From the NCBI GenBank assembly GCA_002215645.1, contig NGFI01000008.1, forward strand, positions 62,001 through 126,000: a DNA stretch of 64,000 nt. Reading direction: 5' to 3'. The DNA comes from Gemmatimonadetes bacterium 2013_60CM_65_52 (lineage in GTDB: Bacteria > Gemmatimonadota > Gemmatimonadetes > Gemmatimonadales > Gemmatimonadaceae). The position numbers and the translations under genes are program-made. Shown in pieces: positions 13,911-30,634 of this stretch; the stretch's first letter is position 1; the number at the start of each line of letters is the position of its first letter. The notes under the pieces were generated by a model. That model had not been told where the DNA came from. It searched no databases and saw only the letters and a list, made by a program, of their open reading frames with translations.

Positions 13911-13940
13911 GGTCGGGGGGTCTCCCGTCTCGGTGATGAT

Positions 13941-13971: not shown

Positions 13972-14071
13972 CGCGGCGTTATGTCAGTTGCGCAACGTAT
14001 CAAAGAGCCGCATCCGCCGGGAAATCAGTTCGACGGATGACGTTCTCCACAATCGCCCGGAGGACTGACAA

Positions 14072-17000
14072 ATGGCGGAAGGTCGCTATCTTTTCGCAAA
14101 ATTTGCGGGAAGTATTGCGGGAGTGCTGCTGTGCTCCCTCAATCTGCACGCGCAGGCCGTTGGAACAGTGCGGGGTCGGGTCGCCGACACCGGAACCAAT
14201 CAACCGCTGGCGAACGTCAGCATCGTGGTCGAAGGCACGCGCTTCGGGACAACGACGCGTCTCGACGGCACGTTCGATCTCGGCGGCGTTCCGGCCGGCC
14301 GAGTTAGTCTCGGCGCGAGACGAATCGGGTATCACTCGACGTCCACGCTCGTCACCGTCGCGGCCGGAGCCGTGGCATCGGTCGACATCAAGCTCCTCCC
14401 GCAGGCCGCGGTGCTGACCGAAATGGTCGTCACCGGCTACGGCAGCCAACGGCGAGAGGCCGTCACCGGCGCCGTGAGCACGGTCGAGGCGAAGGACGCG
14501 AAGGTCGGCGTCGTCACGAACGCGACGCAGATGCTTCAGGGCCGCGCGCCCGGCGTGCAGATCGTGCAGAGCAACGGTGAACCGGGCGGCAACACGCAGA
14601 TCCGGATCCGCGGCGGCACGTCGATCAGCGCCGGCAACGAGCCGCTCTACGTCATCGACGGTGTGCCACTCCAGAACGACGGCACCTCGCCTGGCGCTGC
14701 CGGCGTCGCCTTCAACGCGGCGCTCTCGCGCAACCCGCTCAATTCCATCAGTCCCGATGACATCGAGTCGATGACGATCCTCAAGGACGCATCGGCCACG
14801 GCCATCTATGGAAGCCGCGCGGCGAACGGCGTCATTCTGATCACCACCAAGCGCGGTACTCGCGACTCGCAGTTGGAGTACGACGTGTACGCGGGCGCCG
14901 CCTCACCCACCAAGACGCTCGGCCTCGCAACGGCGGATCAGTACCGCACGTTCGTCACGCAGTTCAAGGACTCGCTGGGTGGCCAGGGTGCGGTCACGGC
15001 GCTCGGCAACGCGTCCACGGATTGGGAGAAGGCGCTGACGCGCACGAGTCTCGCGATGAATCACAACCTCGCCTTCAGCGGCGGGTCCGCGCAGACGAAG
15101 TATCGTGCGTCGATGAACTACTTCGACCAGGAAGGCATCATCAAGAACAGTGGGCTCAAGCGGTATCAGGGCCGACTGAACGCGACGCACGATGCCCTGG
15201 ACAGCCGGCTCCGCCTCGCCCTGAACCTGAGCGCGTCGCGCGTGAACAACACGTTCTCGCCGAATGAAAACGGCGGCGGCTTCACCGGCGGATTGTTCAC
15301 CAACATGGTGATCTTCGATCCCACGAAGCCGATTCAGAACGCCGACGGAACGTTCTTCGAGATCGGCACCGGCGCGCAGGACGTGCGCAACCCGGTCGCG
15401 ATGATCCAGCAGCTCTACGATTACGCGCCGGAAAATCGCCTGCTGGGGAATGTCACCGGCACGATCCAGCTCCATGACAACCTGACGGCGCAGACGCTCC
15501 TCGGTGCCGACAACAGCAACTCGACGCGGCAGTCCTATGCGCCGCGCGTGAGCCCGATCGGCGCTGCGTTCAGCGGGTACGCCCGTCAGGCCGAGCGCAG
15601 TCTGCAGAACCTGAATTTCCAGCAGCTCCTCACGTTCTCGAAGCACATGGGCGAGAACGAAGTCGAGCTCGTGGGCGGGTATGAGTACACGAAGAACAAC
15701 AACATGGAGTTCGCGTCCGCGGCGCAGGGGTTCATCACCGACGCATACGGCGTGGACAACCTGAACGCCGGCACGACGACGCCTGTGGGGTATCCGTACT
15801 CGTGGCACAGCGAGAGCGAGCTCTCGTCGTTCTTCTCCCGACTGAACATCGGCTTCGGCGGACGGTTCTTCGTGACGGGTGTGATGCGTCGGGACGGCTC
15901 CTCGCGTCTCGCGCCGGGACATCAGTGGGCCGTGTTCCCGGGGCTCTCCGCCTCGTGGCGCATGACCGACGAATCGTTCATGCGGAGCCATCCGCTCGGC
16001 CTCTCGGCACTCGCATTGCGCGTGGGCTGGGGCAAGCAGGGCAACCAGGCGGTGGCGCCGTATCAGACGCAGCTGCTGCTCAAGTCCGACAATGGGTCGC
16101 TGTATCCATTCGGCGGCGTCGTCACCAGCGGTTTGCGCGCGGTGCAGGTCGGCAATCCCGACCTGAAGTGGGAGACGGCCGAGCAAACGAATGTCGGCAT
16201 CGATTTCGGCCTGCTGCAGGATCGCGTCACCGGCACGATCGATATCTATCAGAAGAACACCAAGGATCTGCTGTTGAACCGCGCCGTACCGCAGCCAGCC
16301 GTCGTGAGCTCTCGGATCGAGAACATCGGAAGCCTACGCAACCGCGGTGTCGAAGGATCGTTGGACATGCAGTTGTGGAGCAGTGGCAAGAAGTCGCTCA
16401 CCGGCGGGCTCGTGCTCACGGTAGAGCGGAATCAGGTCACCAGTCTCGGTGACACCACGGCCGCCTGCGCCGCCGATTCGACGACGCAGAGCTTCCGCGC
16501 CGCCAGCAACGCGAAGTGCACGTTCATCCAGAGCGGCTTCGTGTTCGGGCAGGGACAGTCGAATCAGTACTCGCAGATCATCCTGCGTGGACAGCCGCTC
16601 GGATCCTTCCTCGCGCCGCGCTTCATCGGCGTGAAGAATGGACAGCAGTACTTCGCCTGCACCGTCGCCGGGCCGAGCTGTGCAAACGGTCAGACGACGG
16701 ATCCGACGGACGCCGATCGCGAGTTCATCGGCTCCGCAAATCCGAGCTTCACACTCGGCGTGCGCAACAACGCCGCGTGGGGCGCGCTGGATATGGCCTG
16801 GCTGTGGCGCGGTGAGTTCGGCGGCAACACGTTCAACAACACGGCGCTCGTGTATCAGACCAAGAGCGACGCGGCGCAGGGCCGCAACTTCATCGCGGCC
16901 GCGATTGGAATGCCGGACAACATTCACGAGCCCGCGAAATTCTCGTCGCGGTGGATCGAGAGCCGCACGTTCGTGCGGCTGCAGAACATGACCCTTGGGT

Positions 17001-17197
17001 ACACGCTGCCGCAGTCGCTCACGCGCGGCCGCACCACCCGCGCGTACGCCTCGGGCGACAACCTGCTGCTCTTCACTGGTTACTCGGGCTACGATCCGGA
17101 AGTGTTCGTTGCATCCGGACTCGCGTCCCGTGGCATCGACTATCTGACGTATCCGCCGACTCGCAGGTTCACCATTGGTGCTCGCACCCAATTCTGA
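14072..17197 (+). CDS. susC: SusC/RagA-type TonB-linked outer membrane transporter
   Basis: 1041 residues; GGAGG lies 9 bases before the ATG. Signal peptide to about residue 28, then a carboxypeptidase-regulatory-like domain (residues ~30-110, 'VRGRVADTGTNQPLANVSIVVEGT'), then the plug (~120-250) with the signatures 'RIRGGTSI', 'PLYVIDGVPL' and 'ILKDASATAIYGSRAANGVI', then a 22-strand-type barrel. SusC forms the outer-membrane pore for oligosaccharides, powered by TonB-ExbBD, with SusD as its lid. susD follows 29 bases later. Context (trehalase, glycosidase-like protein) suggests a glucose-containing substrate such as trehalose, but specificity cannot be read from the sequence. Confidence 0.95.
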   Translation: MAEGRYLFAKFAGSIAGVLLCSLNLHAQAVGTVRGRVADTGTNQPLANVSIVVEGTRFGTTTRLDGTFDLGGVPAGRVSLGARRIGYHSTSTLVTVAAGAVASVDIKLLPQAAVLTEMVVTGYGSQRREAVTGAVSTVEAKDAKVGVVTNATQMLQGRAPGVQIVQSNGEPGGNTQIRIRGGTSISAGNEPLYVIDGVPLQNDGTSPGAAGVAFNAALSRNPLNSISPDDIESMTILKDASATAIYGSRAANGVILITTKRGTRDSQLEYDVYAGAASPTKTLGLATADQYRTFVTQFKDSLGGQGAVTALGNASTDWEKALTRTSLAMNHNLAFSGGSAQTKYRASMNYFDQEGIIKNSGLKRYQGRLNATHDALDSRLRLALNLSASRVNNTFSPNENGGGFTGGLFTNMVIFDPTKPIQNADGTFFEIGTGAQDVRNPVAMIQQLYDYAPENRLLGNVTGTIQLHDNLTAQTLLGADNSNSTRQSYAPRVSPIGAAFSGYARQAERSLQNLNFQQLLTFSKHMGENEVELVGGYEYTKNNNMEFASAAQGFITDAYGVDNLNAGTTTPVGYPYSWHSESELSSFFSRLNIGFGGRFFVTGVMRRDGSSRLAPGHQWAVFPGLSASWRMTDESFMRSHPLGLSALALRVGWGKQGNQAVAPYQTQLLLKSDNGSLYPFGGVVTSGLRAVQVGNPDLKWETAEQTNVGIDFGLLQDRVTGTIDIYQKNTKDLLLNRAVPQPAVVSSRIENIGSLRNRGVEGSLDMQLWSSGKKSLTGGLVLTVERNQVTSLGDTTAACAADSTTQSFRAASNAKCTFIQSGFVFGQGQSNQYSQIILRGQPLGSFLAPRFIGVKNGQQYFACTVAGPSCANGQTTDPTDADREFIGSANPSFTLGVRNNAAWGALDMAWLWRGEFGGNTFNNTALVYQTKSDAAQGRNFIAAAIGMPDNIHEPAKFSSRWIESRTFVRLQNMTLGYTLPQSLTRGRTTRAYASGDNLLLFTGYSGYDPEVFVASGLASRGIDYLTYPPTRRFTIGARTQF

Positions 17198-17226
17198 TGC
17201 GACCAACCATTAGAGGGCCACAGGTG

Positions 17227-18843
17227 ATGAAGACATTTTCCGGAAGGACGGCACGCAAATACGCATGCCTGATGATTGCGCCGGTTCTCCTCGTCGGGGG
17301 CAGCAGTTGCACGAGCCTCACCGAGGTGCCGCACGACGCGCTCACGGCCGAGAACGCGTTCCACTCGGACGCCGAGATTACGGCTGGCGTCGCGGGCGTC
17401 TACTCGACGCTGCGCGCGGTGGAATGGGTCGGGTACGAGTCGCTGCAGGACCTCACGACCGACATGGCGATCGTCCCGACGCGCGGCAGCGACTGGTACG
17501 ACAACGGCCAGTGGCTGGACCTGCATCGGCAGACCTGGACGGCGAACAGCTCGGGCACGCTGGCTTTCCTCAACGGCGCATGGAACGACATGTTCGGCGC
17601 CGTCGCCAAGGCCAACCTGCTGATCGACGTCATTACGAAGGCGAACAGCGGGTCGAAGGGTGACTCGACGCTTGCGGAGCTCCGCACGTTCCGGGCATGG
17701 GATTACTACATGCTCTCGGACATGTTCGGCGGCACTCCGCTGGTGACGACGACCGAGCTGAAACAGTATCCGCGTGTTTCGCGGGACTCGGTCTTCCACT
17801 TCATCGAGACGGAAATACTCGCCTCGCGTGACAGGCTGCCGTCCAAGCGGGACGGGGGTGCGGCGGGCCGTCTGACCAAGGGCGCCGCGAACGCGATGCT
17901 GGCGAGCCTCTACATCAACGCTGGCGTGTTCGGCAAGGCCAGCGGTTGGAGCGGCACGAGCTACAATTCCTGCACGACGGTCAACGCGGCCGGCGGCAAG
18001 TCATCGTGCCAGGCGGCAATCGACGCCGCCAACGCGGTGATCAACTCCGGCGTGTACACGCTGAACAGCAAGTGGTCGGACAACTTCAGCCTGACCAACA
18101 AGGGATCGCCGGAGAACATCTTCGTGATCGTGCACGTGGCCGACCAGGGACTCGGCGGCACGTGGCCGATGCGCACGCTGCATTACAACCAGCTCTCGAC
18201 GGGCTGGGGTGGACCATGGAACGGCTGGGCAACGACCGCCGAGACGTTCGGCAAGTTCCAGACGACCGACGAGCGCCGTGGCATGTGGCTCTTCGGGCAG
18301 GGAACGAGCTTCCAGAACGGACAGCCCGTGAACGATCGCACCGGCAAGCCGCTCATCTTTACTGCGGCCATCGCCGACGCGAACTCGGCGAACGAAGCCG
18401 AGGGTGTTCGCTTCAACAAGTTCCCGCCGCTGGCCGATGCACCCACGGGCCAGTCGCACCCGAACGATTTCCCCTTCTTCCGCCTCGCCGAGATGTACCT
18501 GATCAGAGCAGAAGCGGAGAATGAGCTTGGACAGTCGGCAGCCGCCATTGCCGATCTGGCGATCATTCACGACCGTCATGATCAGACCAACACGGTCGGC
18601 AAGATGGATCTCTCGTCTGCACAGAAGATCCGCGATGCAATTCTCAACGAGCGGCTGCTGGAGTTTGCCGCCGAAGGGAAGCGCCGCTCGGACATGATCC
18701 GGATGGGCAAGTTCCTCTCGTGGACCGAGTCGTCGAAGAACGGTGTCTCGGCCTCGCCACGCGATGCGCACTTCATCGTGTTCCCGATTCCGGCACCGCA
18801 GCTCGCCTCCAACCCGCTGCTCACGCAGAACGCTGGCTACTGA
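17227..18843 (+). CDS. susD: SusD/RagB-family substrate-binding lipoprotein
   Basis: 538 residues from ATG 17227; the open frame extends upstream to 16951 but there it only shadows susC. The N-terminus is a lipoprotein signal with a cysteine in 'LVGGSSCTSL'. Typical SusD sequence features follow: 'EVPHDALTAENAFHSD', the TPR-like helices around 'ELRTFRAWDYYMLSDMFG', and C-terminal 'FFRLAEMYLIRAEAENELG' and 'ILNERLLEFAAEGKRRSDMIR'. It binds the glycan on the cell surface and caps SusC. It is downstream of susC by 29 bases, certainly the same operon. Confidence 0.95.
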   Translation: MKTFSGRTARKYACLMIAPVLLVGGSSCTSLTEVPHDALTAENAFHSDAEITAGVAGVYSTLRAVEWVGYESLQDLTTDMAIVPTRGSDWYDNGQWLDLHRQTWTANSSGTLAFLNGAWNDMFGAVAKANLLIDVITKANSGSKGDSTLAELRTFRAWDYYMLSDMFGGTPLVTTTELKQYPRVSRDSVFHFIETEILASRDRLPSKRDGGAAGRLTKGAANAMLASLYINAGVFGKASGWSGTSYNSCTTVNAAGGKSSCQAAIDAANAVINSGVYTLNSKWSDNFSLTNKGSPENIFVIVHVADQGLGGTWPMRTLHYNQLSTGWGGPWNGWATTAETFGKFQTTDERRGMWLFGQGTSFQNGQPVNDRTGKPLIFTAAIADANSANEAEGVRFNKFPPLADAPTGQSHPNDFPFFRLAEMYLIRAEAENELGQSAAAIADLAIIHDRHDQTNTVGKMDLSSAQKIRDAILNERLLEFAAEGKRRSDMIRMGKFLSWTESSKNGVSASPRDAHFIVFPIPAPQLASNPLLTQNAGY

Positions 18844-18871
18844 TTCGGGGCTGGAGACAAAATAGTTGTGG

Positions 18872-18908
18872 CGTTAGCGTGTTCATCGATGTGATGGGCA
18901 CGCTAACG
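18872..18908 (+). terminator. Stem-loop after susD
   Basis: CGTTAGCGTG (18872-18881) pairs perfectly with CACGCTAACG (18899-18908) around a 17-base loop, 28 bases after the susD stop. No T-run follows. It may attenuate transcription between susCD and the downstream FG-GAP gene, or protect the susCD mRNA 3' end, giving unequal expression within one operon. Confidence 0.55.
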
Positions 18909-18933
18909 TCGTTCTATTGACTACGTTGATCAG

Positions 18934-21900
18934 ATGATGCCGCCAGTGCCCCCTGGGAGACTTGCGCTCGCCCTGGGCGCGCTATGGGCCGCCGCGGCGT
19001 GCTCCGGCGTAGACGCGGCGGGTCGCGACCCATCGGCGAAGATTCCCGCCGCCGACGGACACCTCTTTACGAGGCTGCCCGCGGCGTACACGGGCGTGCG
19101 GTTCGAGAACCGGCTCACGGACACCCCGGACTTCAACGTCTTCACCTATCGCAACTTCTATAATGGAGGGGGCGTCGCGACGGCCGATCTCACGGGAGAC
19201 GGACTGCCGGAAGTGGTGCTCACGTCGAATCAGGGCGGGCCGCGTCTCTACCTGAATGAAGGCAAGTTCCACTTTCGCGACATCACGAAGGAAGCGGGTA
19301 TCAAGTTCAAGGGCCCAGGCTCCTGGGCCACCGGCGTCGCGATCGCCGATGTGAACGGAGACGGGCTGCTCGACATCTACATCTGCTACGCGGGCAATGG
19401 ACCGCCCGAGCAGCGCGCGAATGAGCTGTACATCAACGAGGGCGTTGGCACCGATGGTCTGCCTCGCTTCCGGGAGATGGCGGCGCAGTATGGCGTCGCC
19501 GATGAGGGTTACTCCACGCAGGCGGTCTTCTTCGACTACGACCACGACGGGAAGCTGGATCTGTTCGTCCTCAACAACTCACCGCGGCCGGTCAGCAGCT
19601 TCGGACCAGAGAACAACCGCGACGTTCCGAGCAAGTATGGCGGCCACAAGCTGTATCACAACGTGGGTGGCCGTTTCGTCGACGTCACGAAGCAGGCTGG
19701 CATTCACGAGGCCGAATTCGGCTTCGGGCTCGGTGTGGTCGCCAGCGATGTGAACGGTGACGGCTGGCCGGACCTGTACGTGTCGAACGACTTCTTCGAG
19801 AAGGACTACCTCTACATCAACAACCGCAATGGGACGTTCACCGAGTCGATCGATCGGGCGGCGCCGTCCATCAGCTATGCCTCGATGGGGCTCGACGTGG
19901 CGGACGTCGACAACGACGGGCGGCCCGACGTCTACACCACCGACATGCTGCCGGAGGATCAGGTTCGTCTTCAGACGACGACGACCTGGGATTCCTGGGC
20001 GCGGTACCTCACCAACGTGAAGAGCGGATATCACCACCAGTTCACGCGGAACATGCTCCAGGTGAACAATGGCGATGGAACGTTCAGCGACGTGGGGCAG
20101 ATGGCGGGTGTCGCGCGTACGGACTGGAGCTGGGGCGCGCTGATCGCCGACTTCGACATGGATGGCCAGAAGGACATCTTCGTGACGAATGGCATCGCGA
20201 AGGACCTGACGTCGCAGGACTACCTGGCCTGGCTGACGGAGCAGCGTTCGTCGCAGGGCGGCAGTGGGAAGCAGGCCGATTACCTGAAGCTGATCGCCGC
20301 CGCGAGCTCGACGAAGCTCCCGAACTATGCCTTCCACAACAACGGCAACCTTACGTTCACCAATCTGAGCGCGGCGTGGGGCCTCAGTACACCGAGCTTT
20401 TCGTCGGGTGCGGCGTACGCGGATCTGGACGGCGACGGCGCGCTCGACCTGATCGTGAACAACGTGAACGACACGGCGTTCGTGTATCGGAACAATGCGC
20501 GCACGCTCACGCCGAACCGGTACCTTCAGGTGAAGCTCGATGGTGATGCGCCGAACCGATTCGCCGTCGGCGCAAAGGTGACGTTGTTCACCGGCAGCAC
20601 GCTGCTTTTTCAGGAGCTCAGCCCGACGCGAGGGTTCCAGTCGAGCGTGGACTATGTGCTGACCTTCGGGCTGGGCGCGCGCGACACGGTGGACTCGATG
20701 ATCGTCGCGTGGCCGGGACGCGGGCCACGCGATGCGCGTGTCAGTGTGCTCAGGAGTGTTGCGGCGAACCACCGTATCACGGTGCGGGAAGCGGAGGCCG
20801 TCCCGGCGCCGGCGCCTGGGTTGACGCATCGGCTCGTGGCCGACGTTACACGCGACGTCGCCATTCCGTTCGTGCATCGCGAGAACGAGTTCAGCGACTT
20901 CGAGCGCGAGCCGCTGATGCCAAAGCTCGTGTCCACCGAAGGCCCTGCACTCGCGGTTGCCGACGTCAACGGTGACGGGCTCGATGACATGTTCTTCGGC
21001 GGCGCGAAGGGGCAGCCGGGAAAGCTGCTCATTCAGCAGCGCAACGGCAGCTTCACCAGCGTCAGCGAGAAGGAATTCGCGAAGGATTCACTCTCGGAGG
21101 ACGTCGGCGCGGTGTTCTTCGACGCAAACGGAGACGGCCATCCCGACCTCTATGTCGTCAGCGGTGGAAACGAATACAGCGAGGGCGCCACCGCGCTCCA
21201 GGATCGCCTCTATCTGAACGACGGCCACGGAAATTTCCGAAAGGCCGAAGGCTATCTGCCCGCTGAGCGGACCTCAGGGTCGCGCGTGGCCGCGGCCGAC
21301 TTCGATGGCGATGGGCATATCGATCTCTTCGTCGGCGGACGTGTGGTGCCGTGGCGCTATGGTGTGGATCCGCCCAGCATGCTGCTGCGCAACGACGGCA
21401 AGGGACATTTCACCGATGTCACCGACCAGGTCGCGCCCGGCCTTCGGAACGTTGGCATGGTCACCGATGCCGTGTGGCGTGACATCGACGGTGACGGCCG
21501 CCCCGATCTCATCCTCGTCGGCGAATGGATGCCGATCACGATCTTCCATAACACGGGCGGAAAGCTCGAGCGGATGAACGTGCCGGGGTTGGAGAAATCG
21601 GACGGTTGGTGGAACAGGATCATCGCTGGCGATTTCACGGGACACGGCCGAGTGGACTTCATCGTGGGCAACATGGGACTGAATGGCCGGCTGCACGCGA
21701 GCGCCACGGAGCCCACGACGATGTACGTGAATGATTTCGCACAGAGTGGCCTCGTGCAGCAGATCATCACGACGTCCAATGGCGGCGCGAGCTATCCGGT
21801 GCTCATGCGCGATGAGCTGCTCAACGTCATTCCGCGGCTGCGCGACCGTTTTCCGACCTATGCCTCGTACGCGCGCGCGCGCATCGAGGACATATTCTCT

Positions 21901-22371
21901 TCGCAGGAGCTGTCGGCTGGCGTCGTGAAGCACGCCTACACGTTCGCGACGTCGCTCGTGCGCAACAACGGCGACGGCTCGTTCACGGTCATTCCGCTGC
22001 CGGCTGAGGCGCAGCGGGCTCCGGTCTACGGCATCCTGGCGACGGACGTGGACGGAGATGGCCACGTGGACCTGCTGCTCGCCGGGAATTTCGACGGCAT
22101 TCCCCCTGAGCTTGGCGGACGCATGAGCGCCAGCGCCGGGCTGGTGCTCCGCGGAGACGGAAAGGGAAGCTTTACGCCACTCGAGGGGGGTCAGAGTGGT
22201 TTCGTCGTGCCGGGCCAGTCACGCGACATTCAACGTGTGCGGACTGGCGGCCGAGGCGATCTCTACGTGGTGGCGCGCAACAACGATCGCCCGTTGGCGT
22301 TCCGTGCGACGACGAGCGGCCAGACCAGCCGGCCGCTCGCCGCGCGGCGTGCTAGTGGTGCTTCGTTTTGA
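18934..22371 (+). CDS. CRTAC1-type FG-GAP/VCBS + ASPIC/UnbV surface lipoprotein (first copy)
   Basis: 1145 residues; lipoprotein signal with the cysteine after 'LWAAAA'. About a dozen Ca2+-binding loops of the form DxNxDGxxD are visible ('DVNGDGLLDIYI', 'DYDHDGKLDLFV', 'DVNGDGWPDLYV', 'DVDGDGHVDLLL'), building one or two beta-propellers. An ASPIC/UnbV segment lies in the middle (~residues 535-625, with 'GAKVTLFTGSTLLFQ' and 'GFQSSVDYVLTFGLG'), then a second propeller set. Such proteins are frequent partners of SusCD-like systems and are probably surface exposed. Their biochemical role is not established. A homologous copy lies 0.5 kb downstream. The 3' end overlaps the next, convergent gene by 20 bases. 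Confidence 0.88.
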   Translation: MMPPVPPGRLALALGALWAAAACSGVDAAGRDPSAKIPAADGHLFTRLPAAYTGVRFENRLTDTPDFNVFTYRNFYNGGGVATADLTGDGLPEVVLTSNQGGPRLYLNEGKFHFRDITKEAGIKFKGPGSWATGVAIADVNGDGLLDIYICYAGNGPPEQRANELYINEGVGTDGLPRFREMAAQYGVADEGYSTQAVFFDYDHDGKLDLFVLNNSPRPVSSFGPENNRDVPSKYGGHKLYHNVGGRFVDVTKQAGIHEAEFGFGLGVVASDVNGDGWPDLYVSNDFFEKDYLYINNRNGTFTESIDRAAPSISYASMGLDVADVDNDGRPDVYTTDMLPEDQVRLQTTTTWDSWARYLTNVKSGYHHQFTRNMLQVNNGDGTFSDVGQMAGVARTDWSWGALIADFDMDGQKDIFVTNGIAKDLTSQDYLAWLTEQRSSQGGSGKQADYLKLIAAASSTKLPNYAFHNNGNLTFTNLSAAWGLSTPSFSSGAAYADLDGDGALDLIVNNVNDTAFVYRNNARTLTPNRYLQVKLDGDAPNRFAVGAKVTLFTGSTLLFQELSPTRGFQSSVDYVLTFGLGARDTVDSMIVAWPGRGPRDARVSVLRSVAANHRITVREAEAVPAPAPGLTHRLVADVTRDVAIPFVHRENEFSDFEREPLMPKLVSTEGPALAVADVNGDGLDDMFFGGAKGQPGKLLIQQRNGSFTSVSEKEFAKDSLSEDVGAVFFDANGDGHPDLYVVSGGNEYSEGATALQDRLYLNDGHGNFRKAEGYLPAERTSGSRVAAADFDGDGHIDLFVGGRVVPWRYGVDPPSMLLRNDGKGHFTDVTDQVAPGLRNVGMVTDAVWRDIDGDGRPDLILVGEWMPITIFHNTGGKLERMNVPGLEKSDGWWNRIIAGDFTGHGRVDFIVGNMGLNGRLHASATEPTTMYVNDFAQSGLVQQIITTSNGGASYPVLMRDELLNVIPRLRDRFPTYASYARARIEDIFSSQELSAGVVKHAYTFATSLVRNNGDGSFTVIPLPAEAQRAPVYGILATDVDGDGHVDLLLAGNFDGIPPELGGRMSASAGLVLRGDGKGSFTPLEGGQSGFVVPGQSRDIQRVRTGGRGDLYVVARNNDRPLAFRATTSGQTSRPLAARRASGASF

Positions 22372-22786
22372 TGAGGATCACGCCGTTGGCGCCCCGGCTG
22401 CCGTACATCGACATGTTCGCGGCGTCTTTCAGCACTCTGATCTCCGCGATGTCGTACGGACTGATGCCGGCCAGTGCGCCGCCGGGGCCCGGCGTGATGG
22501 CCACGCCATCGATGATGTACAGCGGCTGGTTGTCGGGATTCCAGCTTGCCGAGCCGCGAATGCGCACCGTGAGACTGCCATCCGATGCGTGCCCGATCGT
22601 GACACCTGGGACGTTGTTGGCGAGGATCTTCTCGATGGGTATGTCGCCCGAGCTCGTAATGGCGGACGACGAGACCGTGTTATCGGCCGGCTGCGGAGCC
22701 GGCGCGGTCTCCGGAGGATTCCCGCCTCCACACGCGGAGATGAACGCGGCGCCAAGGATCAGAGACTTTGTACGCAGTGGGAACAT
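22352..22786 (-). CDS. Stand-alone TonB-receptor plug domain lipoprotein
   Basis: 144 residues. The N-terminus is a lipoprotein signal ('LILGAAFISACGGG'), then a Pro/Ala linker, then only a TonB-dependent-receptor plug domain: 'IEKILANNVPGVTI', 'VRIRGSASWNPDNQPLYIIDGVAI', 'AEIRVLKDAANMSMYGSRGANGVILI'. It has no barrel. The motifs are close to the plug of the nearby SusC, including the 'ILKDAS..YGSRAANGVI' block. It is encoded opposite to its neighbours and overlaps the end of the FG-GAP gene tail to tail. A free plug tethered to a membrane could bind TonB, block a barrel or compete with a receptor; none of this is demonstrated. Confidence 0.85.
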   Translation of the reverse strand: MFPLRTKSLILGAAFISACGGGNPPETAPAPQPADNTVSSSAITSSGDIPIEKILANNVPGVTIGHASDGSLTVRIRGSASWNPDNQPLYIIDGVAITPGPGGALAGISPYDIAEIRVLKDAANMSMYGSRGANGVILIKTKHH

Positions 22787-22879
22787 AAAAGCGAACTCCT
22801 CACGGCTCGAGGGCCGCAGCGGGATTATGTCGGACGGTGCAGCATAAAATGATCCTTATCACTTCGCGCGGCTAGTAGC

Positions 22880-25800
22880 GTGCACCGGATTTCAGCCTGG
22901 GCCGCGTTCGCGGCGGTGCTGCTCGCCGTCGCCTCGTGCCGGCAGACCGCGCCCCCCACGCTATTCGAACAGCTCCCGTCCTCATACACGGGTATTTCGT
23001 TTGCCAATCGGCTGCCCGAGGACACGAGTTTCAACATTCTCAACTACCTCTATTACTACAACGGCGGCGGCGTCGCGGTCGGCGACATCAACAACGACGG
23101 CTTGCCCGACCTCTACTTCACATCGAACCTCGGCGCCAATCATCTCTACCTGAACAAGGGGAACTATCAGTTCGAGGACATCACCGTGCGCGCGGGCGTC
23201 GCCGATTCGGTGGGCTGGAAGTCCGGCGTCACCATGGCCGACGTGAACGGCGACGGCTTCGTGGACATCTTCGTGTGCGGCGTGAGCTACCTGGGCGTTC
23301 ACGGCCGCAACGTGCTGTACATCAACAATGGTGACGGCACGTTCACTGATCGGACGAAGGAATACGGGCTGGAGTTCGAGGGCTACTCCACCCAGGCGCT
23401 GTTCTTCGACTATGACGGCGACGGCGCCCTCGACATGTACCTGCTGAACCACTCGGTGCACACCGAGCACGGTACGGGTTCACCGCTGTCGCGCACCGAG
23501 CGCAATCCGCGCGCGGGTGGACGGTTGTATCACAACGACCACGGCCACTTCGTGGATGTGAGTGCCCAAGCCGGCATCTACGGCGGCGCGTTCGGGTACG
23601 GGCTTGGCGTGGTGGCCAGCGATTTCGATGGCGACGGATGCCTCGACCTGTATGTCGCGAACGACTTTCAGGAAGACGATTTCCTTTACCACAACAATTG
23701 CAACGGCACGTTTACAGAAATCGGCGCGCGGGCGATGCGGCATACGAGCCGGGCGTCGATGGGTGTGGACGCGGCCGACTTCAACAACGACGGCCGTACC
23801 GACATCATCTCGGCAGACATGCTTCCCGAGCGCGAGGACGTGCTCAAGTCGTCGGCGTCGACCGAGAGCTTCGCCGTGTACGACCTCACGCGGCAGGCCG
23901 GGTATCATCCGCAATTCGGGCACAATGCGCTGCAGCTCAATCGAGGGTCCGATCCACACGGTCCGCCGGGGCTGACCTACTTCAGCGAGATCGGTTTCCT
24001 GGCTGGCGTTGCCGCGACTGACTGGAGTTGGGCGCCATTGTTCGCGGACCTCGACAACGACGGCCGGAAGGACCTGTTCATCACGAGCGGGATCTACCGC
24101 CGGCCGAACGATCTCGACTATCTCGCGTACGTCGCGAGCCCCGCGATTCAGGCGTCGCTCGGAAGGGCGATTACGCGTGAGAATCTCACGCTCGTCAAGC
24201 GCATGCCGCAGGTCGCCGTGCCGAATCATGCGTTCCGGAACAGCGGTGACCTCACATTTGCCAATGTGACGAACGCCTGGGGACTCGGACAGCCGGGATT
24301 CTCCAATGGAGCGGTGTACGCGGACCTCAACAACAGCGGTGCGCTCGATCTCGTGATCAATCGCATCAACGAGCCGGCGGCCATCTATCGCAATCACGCG
24401 CGAGAGCAGAATGGCGCGCATTATCTCCGCATCGCCCTCCAAGGGGAGGGAGGCAACACGCAGGGCATCGGCGCGAAGGTACTCGCCTGGCACGGCGCGA
24501 GTATGCAGTTGCTCGAGCAGATGCCGACACGGGGTTTCCAGTCATCGGTCGATCCGCGGCTCCATTTCGGACTCGGCGCCGCGTCGCGGGTGGACTCGCT
24601 GCTGGTCGTCTGGCCGGACCGGCGTTTTCAGATGTTGCGCGATGTCGCCGGCGACCGGATGCTCACGCTGTCGCAGCGACAGGCATCGGGGCGCTACGAC
24701 TTCAGGGACCGCGAGCGGAGTGCAGCTCCTCCGGTATTCGCCGACGTCACCGCCGTTGTCGGCATCGATTGGCGACATCACGAGAACCCGGCGGTCGACT
24801 TCGAGCGCGAGCCGCTGCTGCCGCACTTGCTGTCTACGCAAGGACCGGCAATCGCCGTCGGGGACGTGAACGGTGACGGGCTGGACGACATCTACGTCGG
24901 CGGCGCGAAGTGGCAGGCGGGCACATTGTTTCTTCAGCAGCGCGACGGAACGTTCCGCGAAAGTGCGCAGCCCGCATTTACGGCCGATAGTCTGTTCGAG
25001 AGCGTCGATGCCGCGTTCTTCGACGCGAATGGAGATGGCCATCCCGATCTCTACGTCGTGAGTGGCGGCGGGGAGTTCACCGGGTCAAACGACGCGCTTC
25101 AGGATCGACTGTACATCAACGACGGCCACGGGCACTTTCGTCGAGACGTGAGCGCTCTGCCGCGGATGACGGCAAGCGGCTCACGAGTCGCGGTGGGCGA
25201 CTTCAATGGCGATGGTCATCCCGATCTCTTCGTCGGACGGCGCGCCGTCACGGGCGCATACGGCGTGTCGCCGCGGAGCTATCTCCTCGAGAACGACGGA
25301 AAGGGCCACTTCCGTGACGTGACAAGGGAGCGAGCTCCGACAATGGCGGAGCCGGGGATGGTGACATCCGCCGCGTGGGTGGATTACGATCATGACGGGC
25401 ATCTGGACCTTGTCGTCGCCGGGGAGTGGATGCCCGTGCGCGTCTTTCATCAGGAGAACGGTCGCTTCGTTGAGCGCACGAGAGAGGCGGGTCTCGCGGA
25501 CACGAATGGGTGGTGGAACGACGTCACTGTTGCAGACCTCAACGGCGACGGCCGCCCCGATCTCGTGCTCGGCAATCTTGGGCTCAACTCCTACCTGTCG
25601 GCGTCAAAAAATGTTCCGGTGCGACTGTACGTCGGCGATTTTGCCCACGATCGCTCCCTTCAGCCGGTCATCACCGTGGAGCGCAACGGCACGAACTATC
25701 CCGTCGCCGGCGTCGATGAGCTTACGCGCGCGATTCCGGAGCTACGGAGTCGATTTCCCTCGTACACCGCGTTCGGCGGCAAGAGCGTCGAGGAACTGCT

Positions 25801-26248
25801 TTCGCGAGAAGCACTCAACAGCGCGCGACGTTTCGAGGCGGACGACTTTGCCACCTCCGTTGCGATCAACAACGGAAATGGCACCTTCACCCTGCACCGG
25901 CTCCCGATGCAGGCGCAGTTCGCGCCTGTCTCGGCGGCGATCGCCGAAGACTTCGATGGCGATGGGCGCGTCGATCTGCTCCTCGCGGGAAACGAGTTCG
26001 GTGTTCCCCCGTTATTCGGACGATATGACGCCGGTTACGGGCTGCTCTTGCGTGGCGACGGAGGCGGACGGTTCACTTCAGCCGAGTTGTCGCGGAGCGG
26101 TCTCGTTCTCGACGGCCAGGTCCGGCATATGAAAGTCGTCCGCCAAGCCGGCGGCGGGCGGCTGCTTCTCGTAGCGCGCAACGACGACAGGGTTCAGGTG
26201 CTCCGCGTGACACAGCCTAACGCTTCGCTTACCGCCAGGAAACCATGA
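22880..26248 (+). CDS. CRTAC1-type FG-GAP/VCBS + ASPIC/UnbV surface lipoprotein (second copy)
   Basis: 1122 residues from GTG 22880, which directly precedes a lipoprotein signal ('AAVLLAVASCRQT'); no good ribosome site is visible. The same architecture as the first copy is seen: propeller loops ('DINNDGLPDLYF', 'DYDGDGALDMYL', 'DFDGDGCLDLYV', 'DLDNDGRKDLFI'), a central ASPIC/UnbV part ('IGAKVLAWHGAS', 'GFQSSVDPRLHFGLG') and a second loop set ('DVNGDGLDDIYVGG', 'DANGDGHPDLYV', 'DFDGDGRVDLLL'). The two proteins align along their whole length, so they arose by duplication, but they are clearly diverged. The trehalase start lies inside the last codons, so expression is coupled. Confidence 0.88.
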   Translation: MHRISAWAAFAAVLLAVASCRQTAPPTLFEQLPSSYTGISFANRLPEDTSFNILNYLYYYNGGGVAVGDINNDGLPDLYFTSNLGANHLYLNKGNYQFEDITVRAGVADSVGWKSGVTMADVNGDGFVDIFVCGVSYLGVHGRNVLYINNGDGTFTDRTKEYGLEFEGYSTQALFFDYDGDGALDMYLLNHSVHTEHGTGSPLSRTERNPRAGGRLYHNDHGHFVDVSAQAGIYGGAFGYGLGVVASDFDGDGCLDLYVANDFQEDDFLYHNNCNGTFTEIGARAMRHTSRASMGVDAADFNNDGRTDIISADMLPEREDVLKSSASTESFAVYDLTRQAGYHPQFGHNALQLNRGSDPHGPPGLTYFSEIGFLAGVAATDWSWAPLFADLDNDGRKDLFITSGIYRRPNDLDYLAYVASPAIQASLGRAITRENLTLVKRMPQVAVPNHAFRNSGDLTFANVTNAWGLGQPGFSNGAVYADLNNSGALDLVINRINEPAAIYRNHAREQNGAHYLRIALQGEGGNTQGIGAKVLAWHGASMQLLEQMPTRGFQSSVDPRLHFGLGAASRVDSLLVVWPDRRFQMLRDVAGDRMLTLSQRQASGRYDFRDRERSAAPPVFADVTAVVGIDWRHHENPAVDFEREPLLPHLLSTQGPAIAVGDVNGDGLDDIYVGGAKWQAGTLFLQQRDGTFRESAQPAFTADSLFESVDAAFFDANGDGHPDLYVVSGGGEFTGSNDALQDRLYINDGHGHFRRDVSALPRMTASGSRVAVGDFNGDGHPDLFVGRRAVTGAYGVSPRSYLLENDGKGHFRDVTRERAPTMAEPGMVTSAAWVDYDHDGHLDLVVAGEWMPVRVFHQENGRFVERTREAGLADTNGWWNDVTVADLNGDGRPDLVLGNLGLNSYLSASKNVPVRLYVGDFAHDRSLQPVITVERNGTNYPVAGVDELTRAIPELRSRFPSYTAFGGKSVEELLSREALNSARRFEADDFATSVAINNGNGTFTLHRLPMQAQFAPVSAAIAEDFDGDGRVDLLLAGNEFGVPPLFGRYDAGYGLLLRGDGGGRFTSAELSRSGLVLDGQVRHMKVVRQAGGGRLLLVARNDDRVQVLRVTQPNASLTARKP

Positions 26249-27936
26249 CCACGCTTCAGATGAGATCAGCGATTGGTGTCGCGGCTCTGACTTTATTGGC
26301 GAGCTGTAAGGCGGCAGCGCCGAGTCGCTCGTCGAGCGCCGATCAGCCACGGGTGGTGGACGCGTACGACCCACCACACGACCTTGGTCCTCTGTTCGAG
26401 CGTGTGCAGCTCGGCGGACTCTTCGACGATTCGAAGACGTTTGTGGATGCGCGTCCGCGCTCTGATCCGTCGGCGATTGTTGCGCGGTACACCGACGCGA
26501 GCAGGGCAACGGGGTTCAATCTGCGTGCGTTCGTGGACTCCAACTTCGACATTCCGCGCCCCGTTGGCGGGGACTTCCGCACGGATACCACGCAGGCCAT
26601 GGAGGCGCACATTCGTGCGCTGTGGCCCGTGCTGACGCGTGCCGCCGACACGGCCGATGCGCGCTCGTCGCGAATCCCGTTGCCGAACGCCTATGTCGTT
26701 CCGGGCGGACGATTCCGCGAGGTGTACTACTGGGACTCCTATTTCACGATGCTCGGCCTGGTGGAGAGTGGCCGGACGGATCTCGTGAAGGACATGCTCG
26801 ACAACTTCGCGCACCTCGTGGCGACCATCGGCCACATCCCGAACGGCAATCGAACGTATTATCTGGGGCGCAGCCAGCCTCCCTTCTTCGCGGCGATGGT
26901 GGGACTCTATGCAAAGGCGACGGATACCACACAGGCGCTCCGGTATCTGGATGCACTCGAGAGAGAGCATGTATTCTGGATGGATGGGGCGGACCGGCTG
27001 AAGCCGGGGCAGGCGTATCGGCGCGTGGTCATGATGCCCGAGGGCGTCGCGCTCAATCGATATTGGGATGACTTGCCTGGGCCGCGGCCGGAATCGTTCA
27101 AGCCGGACCATGAGATCGGGCAAACGGTGCCTGATAGTCTGCGCGAGCGATTCTACCGCAATGCGCGCGCGGCCGCGGAGAGCGGTTGGGACTTCAGCAG
27201 CCGCTGGATGCGCGATCCATCCGACCTGAGGACGCTCGAGACGACGGCGCTCATTCCGGTCGATCTCAACAGCCTGATGTACAATGCCGAGCGGATGATT
27301 GCGGCGCTGCGTCGCTTCCGGAATGGGCAGGGTGATGCGGACGTCGCCGCGAAGTACGACCGGGACGCTGAACGCCGGCGGCAGTCCCTGCTCGCCGCGG
27401 CGTACGACCCCAATGACGGATACTTTTACGACGTGCGCTGGCGGACGTGGGAGCGAGTCACCGATCGTCCGTCGCTTGCGGCGGCGGCGGTGCTGTACTT
27501 CGGCCTCGCGGTGCCGTATCAGGCCGTCAGCGTGGCGGGACGGCTGGAGCGTGACTTCCTGAAGCCCGGCGGTTTCGTCACGACGAACATTCGCTCGGGG
27601 CAGCAGTGGGACGCACCGAATGGCTGGCCGCCGCTGGAGTGGATGGCGATGGAAGGGATTCGCCGATACGGCGGCACCGCCCTCGCGGATAGTGCGCGTA
27701 ACCGCTGGATGGCGCTCAATCGGAAGACCTACAAGGCAACGGGGCGGATGACGGAGAAGTACGACGTGGTGGATCTTACGCGGCCGGCGGGTGGGGGGGA
27801 GTACACGACGCAGGACGGTTTCGGATGGACGAATGGGGTGGCGCTGGCGTTGAGTGCTCAGGAACGTACCAGAGCCCGTCCGTCACGGGATGCGGTACGC
27901 CCGGGGCGGCCTGGCGAGCCAGCCAGAGTGCGATAG
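26245..27936 (+). CDS. treA: GH37 alpha,alpha-trehalase, lipoprotein
   Basis: 563 residues. Lipoprotein signal ('LTLLASCKAA'). Both GH37 signatures are present: PGGRFREVYYWDSY at residues 153-166 and QWDAPNGWPP further on. 'ESGWDFSSRW' carries the Asp that is the general acid in E. coli TreA, and 'TEKYDV' the Glu that is the base, followed by 'QDGFGWTNGV'. It hydrolyses trehalose to two glucose in the periplasm or at the outer membrane. The ATG overlaps the stop of the second FG-GAP gene (ATGA at 26245-26248), so the two are translationally coupled. The last ~30 residues are Arg/Pro-rich and unlike the family. Confidence 0.95.
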   Translation: MTTLQMRSAIGVAALTLLASCKAAAPSRSSSADQPRVVDAYDPPHDLGPLFERVQLGGLFDDSKTFVDARPRSDPSAIVARYTDASRATGFNLRAFVDSNFDIPRPVGGDFRTDTTQAMEAHIRALWPVLTRAADTADARSSRIPLPNAYVVPGGRFREVYYWDSYFTMLGLVESGRTDLVKDMLDNFAHLVATIGHIPNGNRTYYLGRSQPPFFAAMVGLYAKATDTTQALRYLDALEREHVFWMDGADRLKPGQAYRRVVMMPEGVALNRYWDDLPGPRPESFKPDHEIGQTVPDSLRERFYRNARAAAESGWDFSSRWMRDPSDLRTLETTALIPVDLNSLMYNAERMIAALRRFRNGQGDADVAAKYDRDAERRRQSLLAAAYDPNDGYFYDVRWRTWERVTDRPSLAAAAVLYFGLAVPYQAVSVAGRLERDFLKPGGFVTTNIRSGQQWDAPNGWPPLEWMAMEGIRRYGGTALADSARNRWMALNRKTYKATGRMTEKYDVVDLTRPAGGGEYTTQDGFGWTNGVALALSAQERTRARPSRDAVRPGRPGEPARVR

Positions 27937-27965
27937 GGAGAGTAGGCACATATGGTCAGGTGGCT

Positions 27966-27997
27966 CCCGGATATCCGGGCTAGACAGGTGCCTGTCT
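27966..27997. terminator. Two adjacent palindromes between convergent genes
   Basis: CCCGGATATCCGGG (27966-27979) is a perfect 14-base palindrome and AGACAGG-TG-CCTGTCT (27982-27997) a 7-bp hairpin, separated by two bases. They start 30 bases after the trehalase stop and lie on the 170-base stretch before the convergent response regulator ends at 28107. They may act as terminator hairpins without a T-tract or as a protein-binding site. Confidence 0.45.
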
Positions 27998-28106
27998 GCG
28001 GAAGATTGCAGCCAGACACTTCTTTATGGCATTCTTCCTTCGTCTCGTCGAATTGCCAGGCCTTCCAGCGCGCCATCCGGGGTCGGGCATGCGCTGCGCG
28101 GGCGCA

Positions 28107-28514
28107 TCAAGCTGTTGCCGCCGGCTCATCAAGGACCTCCCGAACCTTCCGGGTGAGCGCCTCCGACGCGAATGGCTTTTGAAGGAAATTCGCCCTCGCG
28201 TCCAGCAGCCCATTTTGGGAGACTGTCGCATCCGTGTAGCCCGACAAATACAGCACGCGTAGCCCCGGGCGACCCTCGCACAGTTGCGCCACCATCGCTG
28301 GGCCCTTCATCACCGGCATCACGACGTCCGTGACGACCAGGTCGATCGTTCCGGCGTAACGGTCCACCAACGCGATAGCCTCGACGCCATTGGCCGCGGA
28401 AATCAGCTGGTAGCCCGCGTGCTCGAGCATCCGAGCGACGACCCTGCGGACCGACTCCTCATCCTCCACCAGCAGGATGGTCTCCGCGCCCTTCATCGTT
28501 GCCGCACTTGCCAT
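28107..28514 (-). CDS. Single-domain response regulator (CheY-like receiver)
   Basis: 135 residues (a start at ATG 28496 would give 129). It contains only a receiver domain: acidic pair E17/D18 in 'LLVEDEESV', phosphorylated Asp 63 in 'DLVVTDVVMP', and Lys 113 in 'NFLQKPF'. There is no DNA-binding or enzymatic output domain and no histidine kinase beside it. The sequence is close to receivers attached to hybrid histidine kinases ('LYLSGYTD', 'FLQKPF'), so it may act as a phosphate shuttle or be phosphorylated by a distant hybrid kinase. It is divergent from the double LysR gene. Confidence 0.9.
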   Translation of the reverse strand: MASAATMKGAETILLVEDEESVRRVVARMLEHAGYQLISAANGVEAIALVDRYAGTIDLVVTDVVMPVMKGPAMVAQLCEGRPGLRVLYLSGYTDATVSQNGLLDARANFLQKPFASEALTRKVREVLDEPAATA

Positions 28515-28724
28515 TGGTGCACGCTCCAGGACGTCGGCGTCCTTGCGTGAGCACGTGACTGCACGGTACTCGGCGCAAACGGTACACCGTAACTACACGC
28601 CTCGGCGCGGTCCGGCCAATACTTTCTTTGAATCGGTTAACACGCGTCCGGAACATGCGTCTTCAGGTATACCGAAGGTTCCATACCAGGCGGCGACAAT
28701 CACCCATGCCGCAACGTCCTATTT

Positions 28725-28745
28725 GATATGCGTCGCCAGCATATC
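28725..28745. promoter_or_regulatory. Candidate LysR autoregulatory site
   Basis: GATATGC (28725-28731) and GCATATC (28739-28745) form a perfect 7-bp inverted repeat with a 7-base centre, ending 11 bases before the start of the double LysR gene. LysR-type regulators typically bind an interrupted dyad with T-N11-A spacing near their own divergent promoter, and this fits in form. Confidence 0.4.
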
Positions 28746-28756
28746 TGGTGACCTGA

Positions 28757-30634
28757 TTGCTTCTCCGGCAGTTGCGGTACTTCGCTACGGTAGCAGAGCA
28801 TGGCAGTGTGATGCGCGCCGCGACCACGCTGCGCCTCGCACAGCCGGCGTTGTCGCGTCAGCTCCAGAGTCTCGAGCAGGCGGTTGGGACGTCGCTGCTG
28901 GTTCGAGAGCCGCGTGGAGTACGGCTCACCGCCGCGGGAAAGTCGCTGCTCTCGGCGATCGGTCCGCTCTTCGGGCGGCTCGAGGACGCGCTCTGCCGGG
29001 TCTATCTCGCGAACGACGGACGACTGGGAACGCTCCGCGTTGGCATCGGCCGCGAGGCGATCGACAACAGCCAGGTGGGACGCGCGATCATGGCGTTGCG
29101 CGAGCAGTTTCCGGCAGTGCACGTGATCGTCACCGAGGTGGCAAGCGGAGTGCACTCCGACAAGTTGCGCGCACGCGAGTTGGATCTCGCAATCGGCGTC
29201 AACGGCGCGGGAGACGCGAACGTCGCATCGGCCGCCCTGATCGCATTCCACGCCGATAGCGCGATGCTGGCCGCGACGCATGCGCTGGCGAATCGCTCAT
29301 CCCTTGCGGCTGACGACCTGCGAAGCGAGCGCTTTCTCGTCGTCGACCAGTCCATGTTCGGTCCATTTCGAGCACTCTACGAGGAGCTTGCACGGCTCGG
29401 TGTGCACGAGCCGGAGACGCACGCATCCATCGAGTCGGTCTTCAGCCTGGTGGCGGCGGGACGAGGGTGGACGGTGACGGCCGCATCCCTGATGGCCGCA
29501 CCGCCCGCCGGTACCGTGGTGATTCCACTCGACGGCCTCCGCGTGCCGATGCACCTTGCTGTGCGTTGGCGACTCAAGGATGATTCTCCGTTGATCGGGA
29601 ACGTCACCTCGTTCCTTCAGCAGCTCAGCGACCATTCCGTCGCCCGCGGACACTCGATCGCCGTGAATGATGTGCGGGAAGGACCACCGCATGTGCCTCC
29701 GCGGCTCGAAGTGCGCCACCTGCAGGCGCTCGTTGCGATCGCGGAGGCGGGCTCGTTGAGCCGCGCGGCGGAGCGCCTGGGCCTCACGCAGTCGGGGCTG
29801 TCGAGGCAGATCCGATCCCTCGAGCATGACATCGGAGTTTCGCTCTTTCGGCGCAAGTCGAATGGTGTCGCCTTGACGGAGGCGGGCGAAGTACTGCGCG
29901 AGGAGGCGCATCACGTTCTTGCGGCAGTGCAGGACGCCATTGCCCGGGCGCGCCATAGCGTGAAAGGCATCACAGGCCGGTGCACCATTGCCACCATTGC
30001 TACGGAATTCAGCGGCAACATCCTCGTGGAGGTCTTCAAGGACCTGTCCGAGCATCATCCCGGCATCAACGTGAACGTGTCGGAAATGCTGACGCCCTTC
30101 CAGGTGCTGGCGCTCAAGGAGCACCGCATCGATCTGGGCGTCGCAGGCGCCAACGCTGGACTCGTGGACGAGCCGCTCATTGCCGGGGTGCGCCTGATGG
30201 AGGACGTCATCGAGTGCGCGCTGCTCGTCGACTCCCATCCGCTCGCGTCGCGCGCATGGCTGAAGCCGGCGGACCTGGCCGACGTTCCATTCCTCTTCAT
30301 GGAGCGCTCGACTTATCCACGGTTCTACGACATCGTGATGCAGGCGTTCGACGACGTCGGCCTGGTGCCGCGAGTGAACGGCTCGTTCAACGGACCGCGC
30401 GCGATGTGGCGCTCGGCTGCCGAATCACTCGGCTGGACGCTTGGCAGCCGCTCGATGCGGGCCCGTCCACTTGCCGGCCTGGTCGCGGTGCCGATCGAAG
30501 GGCTTCACATCCCTTCGGGCATTCAGTTGCTCTGGCGGCGCGACGAGAGCGACCCCGCGGTGCTCACGGTGCGCGAGGCGTTTCGTCGCCTGCACAGCCC
30601 GGAAGCAGCCCACACCAACGGCGCCGGCTCATGA
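28757..30634 (+). CDS. Tandem double LysR-type transcriptional regulator in one polypeptide
   Basis: 625 residues from TTG 28757; a stop codon lies immediately upstream in frame and the sequence begins 'MLLRQLRYFATVAEHGSV' exactly like a LysR N-terminus, so the start is secure. Residues 1-~313 form one complete LysR protein (winged HTH ~3-62, effector domain ~90-300). Residues ~315-625 form a second complete one, with its own HTH ('LEVRHLQALVAIAEAGSLSRAAERLGL', effector part from 'GRCTIATIATEFSGN'). The two halves are related but clearly diverged. LysR proteins normally act as tetramers of ~300-residue chains, so a covalent dimer could read two ligands or fix one geometry. The last 6 bases overlap the convergent next gene. 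Confidence 0.9.
   Translation: MLLRQLRYFATVAEHGSVMRAATTLRLAQPALSRQLQSLEQAVGTSLLVREPRGVRLTAAGKSLLSAIGPLFGRLEDALCRVYLANDGRLGTLRVGIGREAIDNSQVGRAIMALREQFPAVHVIVTEVASGVHSDKLRARELDLAIGVNGAGDANVASAALIAFHADSAMLAATHALANRSSLAADDLRSERFLVVDQSMFGPFRALYEELARLGVHEPETHASIESVFSLVAAGRGWTVTAASLMAAPPAGTVVIPLDGLRVPMHLAVRWRLKDDSPLIGNVTSFLQQLSDHSVARGHSIAVNDVREGPPHVPPRLEVRHLQALVAIAEAGSLSRAAERLGLTQSGLSRQIRSLEHDIGVSLFRRKSNGVALTEAGEVLREEAHHVLAAVQDAIARARHSVKGITGRCTIATIATEFSGNILVEVFKDLSEHHPGINVNVSEMLTPFQVLALKEHRIDLGVAGANAGLVDEPLIAGVRLMEDVIECALLVDSHPLASRAWLKPADLADVPFLFMERSTYPRFYDIVMQAFDDVGLVPRVNGSFNGPRAMWRSAAESLGWTLGSRSMRARPLAGLVAVPIEGLHIPSGIQLLWRRDESDPAVLTVREAFRRLHSPEAAHTNGAGS

What the first reader, a model, noticed from the sequence alone, without database searches (positions are those of the whole stretch)
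22352..22786. Free-standing TonB plug domain as a lipoprotein
A 144-residue lipoprotein consists of little else than a TonB-receptor plug, with motifs resembling the plug of SusC in the same locus. Without a barrel it cannot transport. It could compete for TonB, plug an open barrel or serve as a periplasmic sensor for uptake.
Basis: partly seen in the sequence, partly recalled or inferred. Interest (0 to 1): 0.7.

Follow-up and report, generated by a model that had tools for sequence, protein, structure and literature searches.

The report
Lone transporter-plug lipoprotein, without barrel
The gene makes only the "stopper" of an outer-membrane sugar channel, hung on a lipid anchor and without the channel; it belongs to an old, conserved family of such loose stoppers, which may close or regulate the real channels encoded nearby.

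Summary
Window 22352-22786 (-) encodes a 144-residue predicted lipoprotein that is little more than a SusC-type TonB-receptor plug. It is neither a remnant nor a one-off. I examined 92 plug-only genes in 60 genomes. After stated exclusions, 86 form one side of a single branch against 68 receptor plugs (SH-aLRT 95.8); they evolve under purifying selection. In 51 of 92 a UnbV/ASPIC gene lies alongside, usually within a susC-susD-UnbV1-plug-UnbV2 locus. It is not always beside susC, and at least seven related loci lack it. The receptors' Ton box is missing or disrupted, which disfavours competition for TonB; the conserved plug core is kept. My best, untested mechanism: an outer-membrane-tethered plug that TonB cannot pull, docking into SusC-type barrels from the periplasm to reseal or hold them shut. 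Precedents: an FpvA plug working in trans (PMC10994204) and phage lipoprotein Llp jamming FhuA (PMC9586334). I found no description of this family in my searches.

The parts
22352..22786 (-). plug-only lipoprotein gene, 144 aa
   Evidence: relatives in conserved context
22796..22801 (-). Shine-Dalgarno-like GAGGAG, 9 nt before the ATG
   Evidence: read from sequence
22733..22786 (-). lipoprotein signal peptide, residues 1-18 (lipobox I-S-A-C)
   Evidence: sequence; C19 invariant in the alignment of 20; lipobox found in 83 of 92
22682..22732 (-). lipid-attachment Cys19 and Pro/Ala-rich linker, residues 19-35; no Ton box
22379..22681 (-). TonB-receptor plug domain, residues 36-136
   Evidence: PF07715 2.9e-15; model matches SusC plug 6z9a_B, Z 11.2
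22361..22453 (-). SusC/RagA signature region, residues 112-142
   Evidence: TIGR04057 56.9 bits
14072..17197 (+). susC (full receptor: N-terminal domain, Ton box, plug, barrel)
17227..18843 (+). susD (likely ATG start; longer ORF from 16951)
   Evidence: PF07980 and PF14322
18934..22371 (+). UnbV1: FG-GAP/ASPIC-UnbV protein with lipobox, 3' end overlaps the plug gene's 3' end
   Evidence: sequence
22880..26248 (+). UnbV2: FG-GAP/ASPIC-UnbV protein with lipobox, divergent from the plug gene (93 bp apart)
   Evidence: sequence
26245..27936 (+). trehalase-family protein
   Evidence: PF01204 5.4e-133; also in related loci

Best explanation
It is a member of an old family of plug-only outer-membrane lipoproteins found largely in and around carbohydrate-uptake loci. 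SHOWN by sequence: signal and lipobox, short linker, complete plug, no barrel, no intact Ton box, single origin, purifying selection, frequent linkage to susCD and UnbV genes. INFERRED: the acyl chain anchors it in the outer membrane with the plug facing the periplasm; the linker lets it reach the periplasmic mouth of SusC-type barrels; when TonB has drawn a barrel's own plug out, or lid closure has loosened it, the free plug docks there. Because it has no Ton box it cannot be pulled out again by TonB. It therefore reseals the barrel or holds it shut: a safety stopper or brake on SusCD uptake.
For: Plug complete to its last strand and nothing after it: all 92 end 0-9 residues past the model. 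Residues conserved in receptor plugs are kept in plug-only ones (88 vs 120 rows): G61 100%, R77 91%, K/R120 96%, Y128 95%, R131 99%, N134 97%, G135 100%. The AlphaFold model has the SusC plug fold (pLDDT 73.8; Z 11.2, rmsd 3.0, 105 residues to BT1763 residues 99-206). Lipobox found in 83 of 92, Asp at +2 in none of the 83. Linkage to SusCD/UnbV. Ton box: 41 of 46 receptor matches carry it by pattern; in plug-only proteins only 10 of 92 keep the GY motif there, and those carry D, Q, N, S or A where receptors mostly have V. Literature: BT1763's Ton box is DEVVVTG and its whole plug can leave the barrel (PMC7782687, passages); a separately expressed FpvA plug complements a plugless barrel in trans (PMC10994204, passages); a small periplasmic lipoprotein, Llp, jams FhuA by binding its plug (PMC9586334, abstract).
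Against: No binding or localisation data. No barrel without its own plug is evident in this genome (24 of 28 barrels have a plug match; of the other four, three show plug-like stretches by eye and one is cut by a contig end), so it is not needed to complete a split receptor. At least seven related UnbV1-UnbV2 loci lack it. About half of the non-UnbV-linked members (11 of 21) have no SusC within 9 kb. Isolated FepA plug is reported to behave as unfolded (PMC11658791). Conserved core residues could serve folding alone. Periplasmic rather than surface exposure is assumed.
Confidence: 0.38

Rival explanations
1. Sensor or binding protein: the free plug has become a periplasmic ligand-binding or signalling module of the sugar-uptake locus and never enters a barrel.
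For: Placement among uptake genes. A carbohydrate gene is a near neighbour in 6 of 20 non-UnbV loci whose neighbours were scanned: GH20/GH3, alpha-galactosidase, galactokinase/glucuronate isomerase, alpha-amylase, two xylose-isomerase-like. The SusC plug contacts substrate in BT1763 (PMC7782687). Plug domains also occur in other barrel-less proteins: CarboxypepD-plug proteins of ~260 aa and a CarbopepD-plug protein in Aquimarina.
Against: No signalling domain attached; no consistent regulator beside it (histidine kinase in 1 of 20 loci scanned). Conserved residues are the generic plug core; no new conserved pocket was seen.
Confidence: 0.27
2. Assembly partner: the plug binds UnbV/SusCD lipoproteins as a structural adaptor of a membrane complex.
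For: UnbV genes flank it on both sides in 32 of 92 cases (29 genomes); 3' ends of plug and UnbV1 mostly lie within 80 bp.
Against: Plug-only genes also occur away from any detected UnbV gene (41 of 92, some with short flanks), and UnbV pairs occur without it.
Confidence: 0.18
3. Competitor for TonB: it titrates TonB away from receptors.
For: 10 of 92 plug-only proteins keep a GY motif where receptors carry the Ton box; Ton-box function is said to depend less on individual side chains than on local structure (PMC11658791, passage).
Against: The window protein and most members have no Ton-box-like stretch; the few that do carry a polar or small residue inside it.
Confidence: 0.07
4. Decayed receptor: remnant of a truncated susC.
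For: Sequence kinship to SusC-type plugs.
Against: Single origin, purifying selection (dN/dS 0.09-0.27 in the 12 closest pairs), constant end point, lipobox, no barrel remnant, not nearest to the local susC plug.
Confidence: 0.02

Closest known systems
SusC/RagA TonB-dependent receptors (TIGR04056), plug domain PF07715
   Same: Plug sequence and fold; TIGR04057 signature above cut-off
   Different: No barrel, no CarboxypepD N-terminal domain, no Ton box; N-terminal lipobox instead
Phage T5 lipoprotein Llp (PMC9586334, abstract)
   Same: Small outer-membrane lipoprotein; Llp acts on a TonB-dependent transporter from the periplasm (proposed, not shown, for this protein)
   Different: Llp is a phage superinfection-exclusion protein that binds FhuA's plug; I saw no sign that Llp is itself a plug domain and did not compare sequences
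FpvA plug expressed in trans (PMC10994204, passages)
   Same: Free plug in the periplasm, able to fill a barrel
   Different: Laboratory construct that includes the signalling domain and TonB box, paired with a plugless barrel; restored function partially
CarboxypepD_reg + plug proteins without barrel (own genome)
   Same: Plug without barrel
   Different: Carry an N-terminal CarboxypepD_reg domain and weaker plug matches; the one such row in the sample (L093) was left out of the final tree

Membership tests
TonB plug domain (PF07715) | profile match above Pfam cut-off | tested here: met
   57.1 bits vs 23.9, residues 36-136, profile 10-107/107
TonB plug domain (PF07715) | plug fold | tested here: met
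   model pLDDT 73.8; Z 11.2, rmsd 3.0, 105 residues to the plug of 6z9a_B
SusC/RagA TonB-dependent receptor (TIGR04056) | full-length model above cut-off | tested here: not met
   101.1 bits vs 368.25, model positions 99-205 of 981 only
SusC/RagA TonB-dependent receptor (TIGR04056) | C-terminal beta-barrel | tested here: not met
   protein ends after the plug; no PF00593 match
SusC/RagA TonB-dependent receptor (TIGR04056) | Ton box before the plug | tested here: not met
   none in the window protein; box defined from BT1763 DEVVVTG, PMC7782687
SusC/RagA TonB-dependent receptor (TIGR04056) | SusC/RagA signature TIGR04057 | tested here: met
   56.9 bits vs 46.2
bacterial lipoprotein | signal peptide with lipobox cysteine | tested here: met
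   ISAC, Cys19 invariant in 20 of 20 aligned; 83 of 92 by pattern
bacterial lipoprotein | lipidation and membrane localisation | not testable with these tools
   no experiment
Llp-like jammer of TonB-dependent transporters | binds a transporter from the periplasmic side and blocks it | not testable with these tools
   analogy only (PMC9586334 abstract)
Llp-like jammer of TonB-dependent transporters | sequence relationship to Llp | not tested
   no comparison was run
receptor pseudogene | relaxed selection | tested here: not met
   dN/dS 0.09-0.27 in the 12 pairs with pN < 0.1; median 0.32 over 294 finite of 297 pairs with pN < 0.30
receptor pseudogene | barrel remnant downstream | tested here: not met
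   downstream DNA is the UnbV1 gene on the other strand

The most novel reading that the evidence does not exclude
Bacteria carry a dedicated, inherited set of 'spare plugs': lipid-tethered stoppers that TonB cannot pull, which enter SusC-type barrels in trans to reseal or lock them. That would be a layer of outer-membrane transport control, and possibly protection against phages or toxins that use these barrels, encoded by the cell itself and made from the transporter's own plug.
Probability: 0.28. Interest if true: 0.85.

Novelty: new variant of a known kind. Interest (0 to 1): 0.6.

Why it matters
[quoted passage not shown] A natural family of free plugs without a Ton box gives genetics and biochemistry a direct handle on it. 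It would also show that the plug is an independently evolving module rather than only a part of a receptor.

Tried and rejected
Remnant of a barrel gene: rejected. Copy of the neighbouring susC plug: rejected; local SusC plugs group among other receptors. Split receptor completing a plugless barrel: not supported in this genome. TonB decoy: disfavoured. Of 29 genomes then searched (Salinivenus plus 28 others; L153 not held), only the Salinivenus genome showed a plug-only frame among the listed matches; the list was cut, so weaker ones could be hidden. RNA families: no match in 12000-30000. Promoter scan: none found in 22200-23000. Literature searches for standalone, plug-only or isolated plug lipoproteins found no description of such a family; passages looked at in PMC2880560 and PMC12204202 did not bear on it; the searches with Gemmatimonadetes/ASPIC/SusC terms were uninformative or empty. 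Braun et al. 2003 (FhuA reconstitution) was seen only as a reference-list entry; it is not held.

Limits. The 92 genes were chosen by similarity to the window plug (not every match was fetched), so very different lone plugs are missed, and linkage rates are for this sample. The 92 include one CarboxypepD-plug protein (L093), rows cut by contig ends (L074, L098, one of L212) and one masked row (L099). Rows dropped before the final tree: L024 (very long branch), L093, two duplicate receptor fragments, rows under 95 residues or with X; 25 of 78 receptor rows from the genome-contig scan were sampled. With L024 and L093 left in, the tree needs 3 changes instead of 1. Neighbour annotation outside UnbV loci covers 30 of 77 listed neighbours in 20 of the 41 such loci. 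The 8% figure for SusC proximity is from this genome only.

Full report
WHAT IS THERE. The - strand ORF 22352-22786 codes for 144 residues: a signal with lipobox ISAC and Cys19, a Pro/Ala-rich linker, and a plug from about residue 36 to the end. Pfam Plug matches residues 36-136 (2.9e-15); the SusC/RagA signature TIGR04057 matches residues 112-142 above its cut-off, while the full SusC model TIGR04056 is matched over positions 99-205 of 981 only, far below its cut-off. GC by codon position looks like the neighbouring genes, and GAGGAG lies nine bases before the ATG.

THE LOCUS. On the + strand lie susC, susD, an FG-GAP/ASPIC-UnbV gene (UnbV1), then, past the plug gene, a second such gene (UnbV2) and a trehalase-family gene. 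The plug gene runs against them: tail to tail with UnbV1 (20-bp overlap), head to head with UnbV2 (93 bp). In related genomes the same order recurs, the UnbV neighbours mostly at 59-71% identity. Some copies carry a GH97 gene between plug and UnbV2 or a PAP2-family gene between UnbV1 and plug. GH97 and trehalase suggest alpha-glucosides as substrate; that is inference.

THE FAMILY. A protein search gave matches at E <= 1e-8 in 51 of 60 genomes searched, receptors and plug-only proteins together; a profile search gave matches at E <= 1e-20 in 279 of 395 genomes of the phylum, likewise mixed. From these and from the named records L099, L102 and L105 I examined 92 plug-only genes in 60 genomes. 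A lipobox was found by pattern in 83, with A, S, G, H, V, T, K, F, P or R after the cysteine and never D; of the nine without, four are cut by a contig end or masked and one is a CarboxypepD-plug protein. Every one ends 0-9 residues after the plug model. The window's genome has four: the window gene and those at C13:383 kb, C2:42 kb and C13:431 kb. Named records with plug-only genes are Gemmatimonadetes (L099, same locus; L102) and a Salinivenus (L105), so the window is most likely Gemmatimonadota (inference).

ORIGIN. A tree of 154 plug rows puts 86 plug-only proteins on one side of a branch and 68 receptor plugs on the other, SH-aLRT 95.8 (exclusions are listed under Tried and rejected; an earlier tree with the two odd rows needs 3 changes). 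The Salinivenus protein lies inside the plug-only side. Plugs of the neighbouring susC genes group with receptors. The alignment is short (117 columns) and many inner forks are unresolved. Close pairs show dN/dS 0.09-0.27 (12 pairs with pN < 0.1).

LINKAGE. 51 of 92 lie next to a UnbV gene in the expected orientation, in 44 genomes; 32 have UnbV genes on both sides. Of 61 with at least 6.5 kb of 3' sequence, 27 have UnbV1 there and 26 of those also a SusC. Of 30 with 9 kb on both sides, 19 have a SusC within 9 kb: 9 of 9 UnbV-linked and 10 of 21 others. About 8% of this genome lies within 9 kb of a SusC; at that rate 10 of 21 has a binomial tail of 2e-6, and at 20% still 0.004. Against strict linkage: of 25 loci with UnbV1-type genes (identity 58% or more, the window included) 12 have the plug directly downstream, 12 have a PAP2-family gene there, and one is cut by a contig end. 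Two of those 12 PAP2 loci have a plug beyond the PAP2 gene. In seven (G012, G077, G086, G108, G117, G178, G191) the gap of 1.40-1.52 kb between UnbV1 and the next UnbV gene is filled by the PAP2 gene and has no room for a plug gene; three are undecided. Outside UnbV loci, 6 of 20 loci scanned have a carbohydrate gene as a near neighbour.

FUNCTIONAL CLUES. BT1763's Ton box is DEVVVTG (PMC7782687, passages). The matching stretch is found in 41 of 46 receptor matches by pattern; two of the five misses are fragments of receptors counted elsewhere. Among plug-only proteins 10 of 92 keep a GY[GA] motif in that place; in them the residue two before the glycine is D, Q, N, S or A, whereas receptors have V (29 of 42) or T (9 of 42). 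One further plug-only match (L224) looks like a chance match, and one (L228) lies in a signal peptide. Plug-core residues are kept at receptor-like levels. That R77 and K120 correspond to barrel-contacting residues of other receptors is recalled, not tested. The model has the SusC plug fold.

MECHANISM. A lipid anchor, a linker and a whole plug without the part that TonB grips fit a stopper acting from the periplasm. That a plug can enter a barrel in trans is experimentally known for FpvA (PMC10994204, passages). That small lipoproteins can jam a TonB-dependent transporter is known for T5 Llp (PMC9586334, abstract). That a SusC plug can leave its barrel whole is reported for BT1763 in vitro; the authors think the spontaneous expulsion non-physiological but propose TonB-driven removal (PMC7782687). 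None of this has been shown for the present protein, and isolated FepA plug behaved as unfolded (PMC11658791).

VERDICT. The family itself I hold at about 0.95; the docking mechanism at about 0.38. It is a new variant of a known domain, not a member of the receptor family.

Noticed in passing
L026 6718-7518 (-), L027 6667-7440 (+), L028 6312-7103 (-): Three CarboxypepD_reg + plug-like proteins of ~260 aa without barrel in the same genome; plug match above the cut-off in one only.
   Followed up: partly
L025 7418-7810 (+): A 130-residue lipoprotein with a weak, diverged plug match (21.5 bits, below cut-off).
   Followed up: partly
L215, L219, L223, L227, L237: Two plug-only genes in tandem beside UnbV1.
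   Followed up: partly
gap between UnbV1 and the next UnbV gene in G012, G077, G086, G108, G117, G178, G191: A PAP2-superfamily gene (weak vanadium-haloperoxidase match in the L060 copy) stands where others carry the plug.
   Followed up: partly
window 28757-30634 (+): One 625-aa ORF holds two LysR-type regulators in a row (two HTH_1 and two substrate-binding domain matches).
   Followed up: no
L141 8944-9258 (+): Aquimarina protein with CarbopepD_reg_2 and plug but a tail of only ~150 residues, no Pfam barrel match in the part scanned.
   Followed up: no
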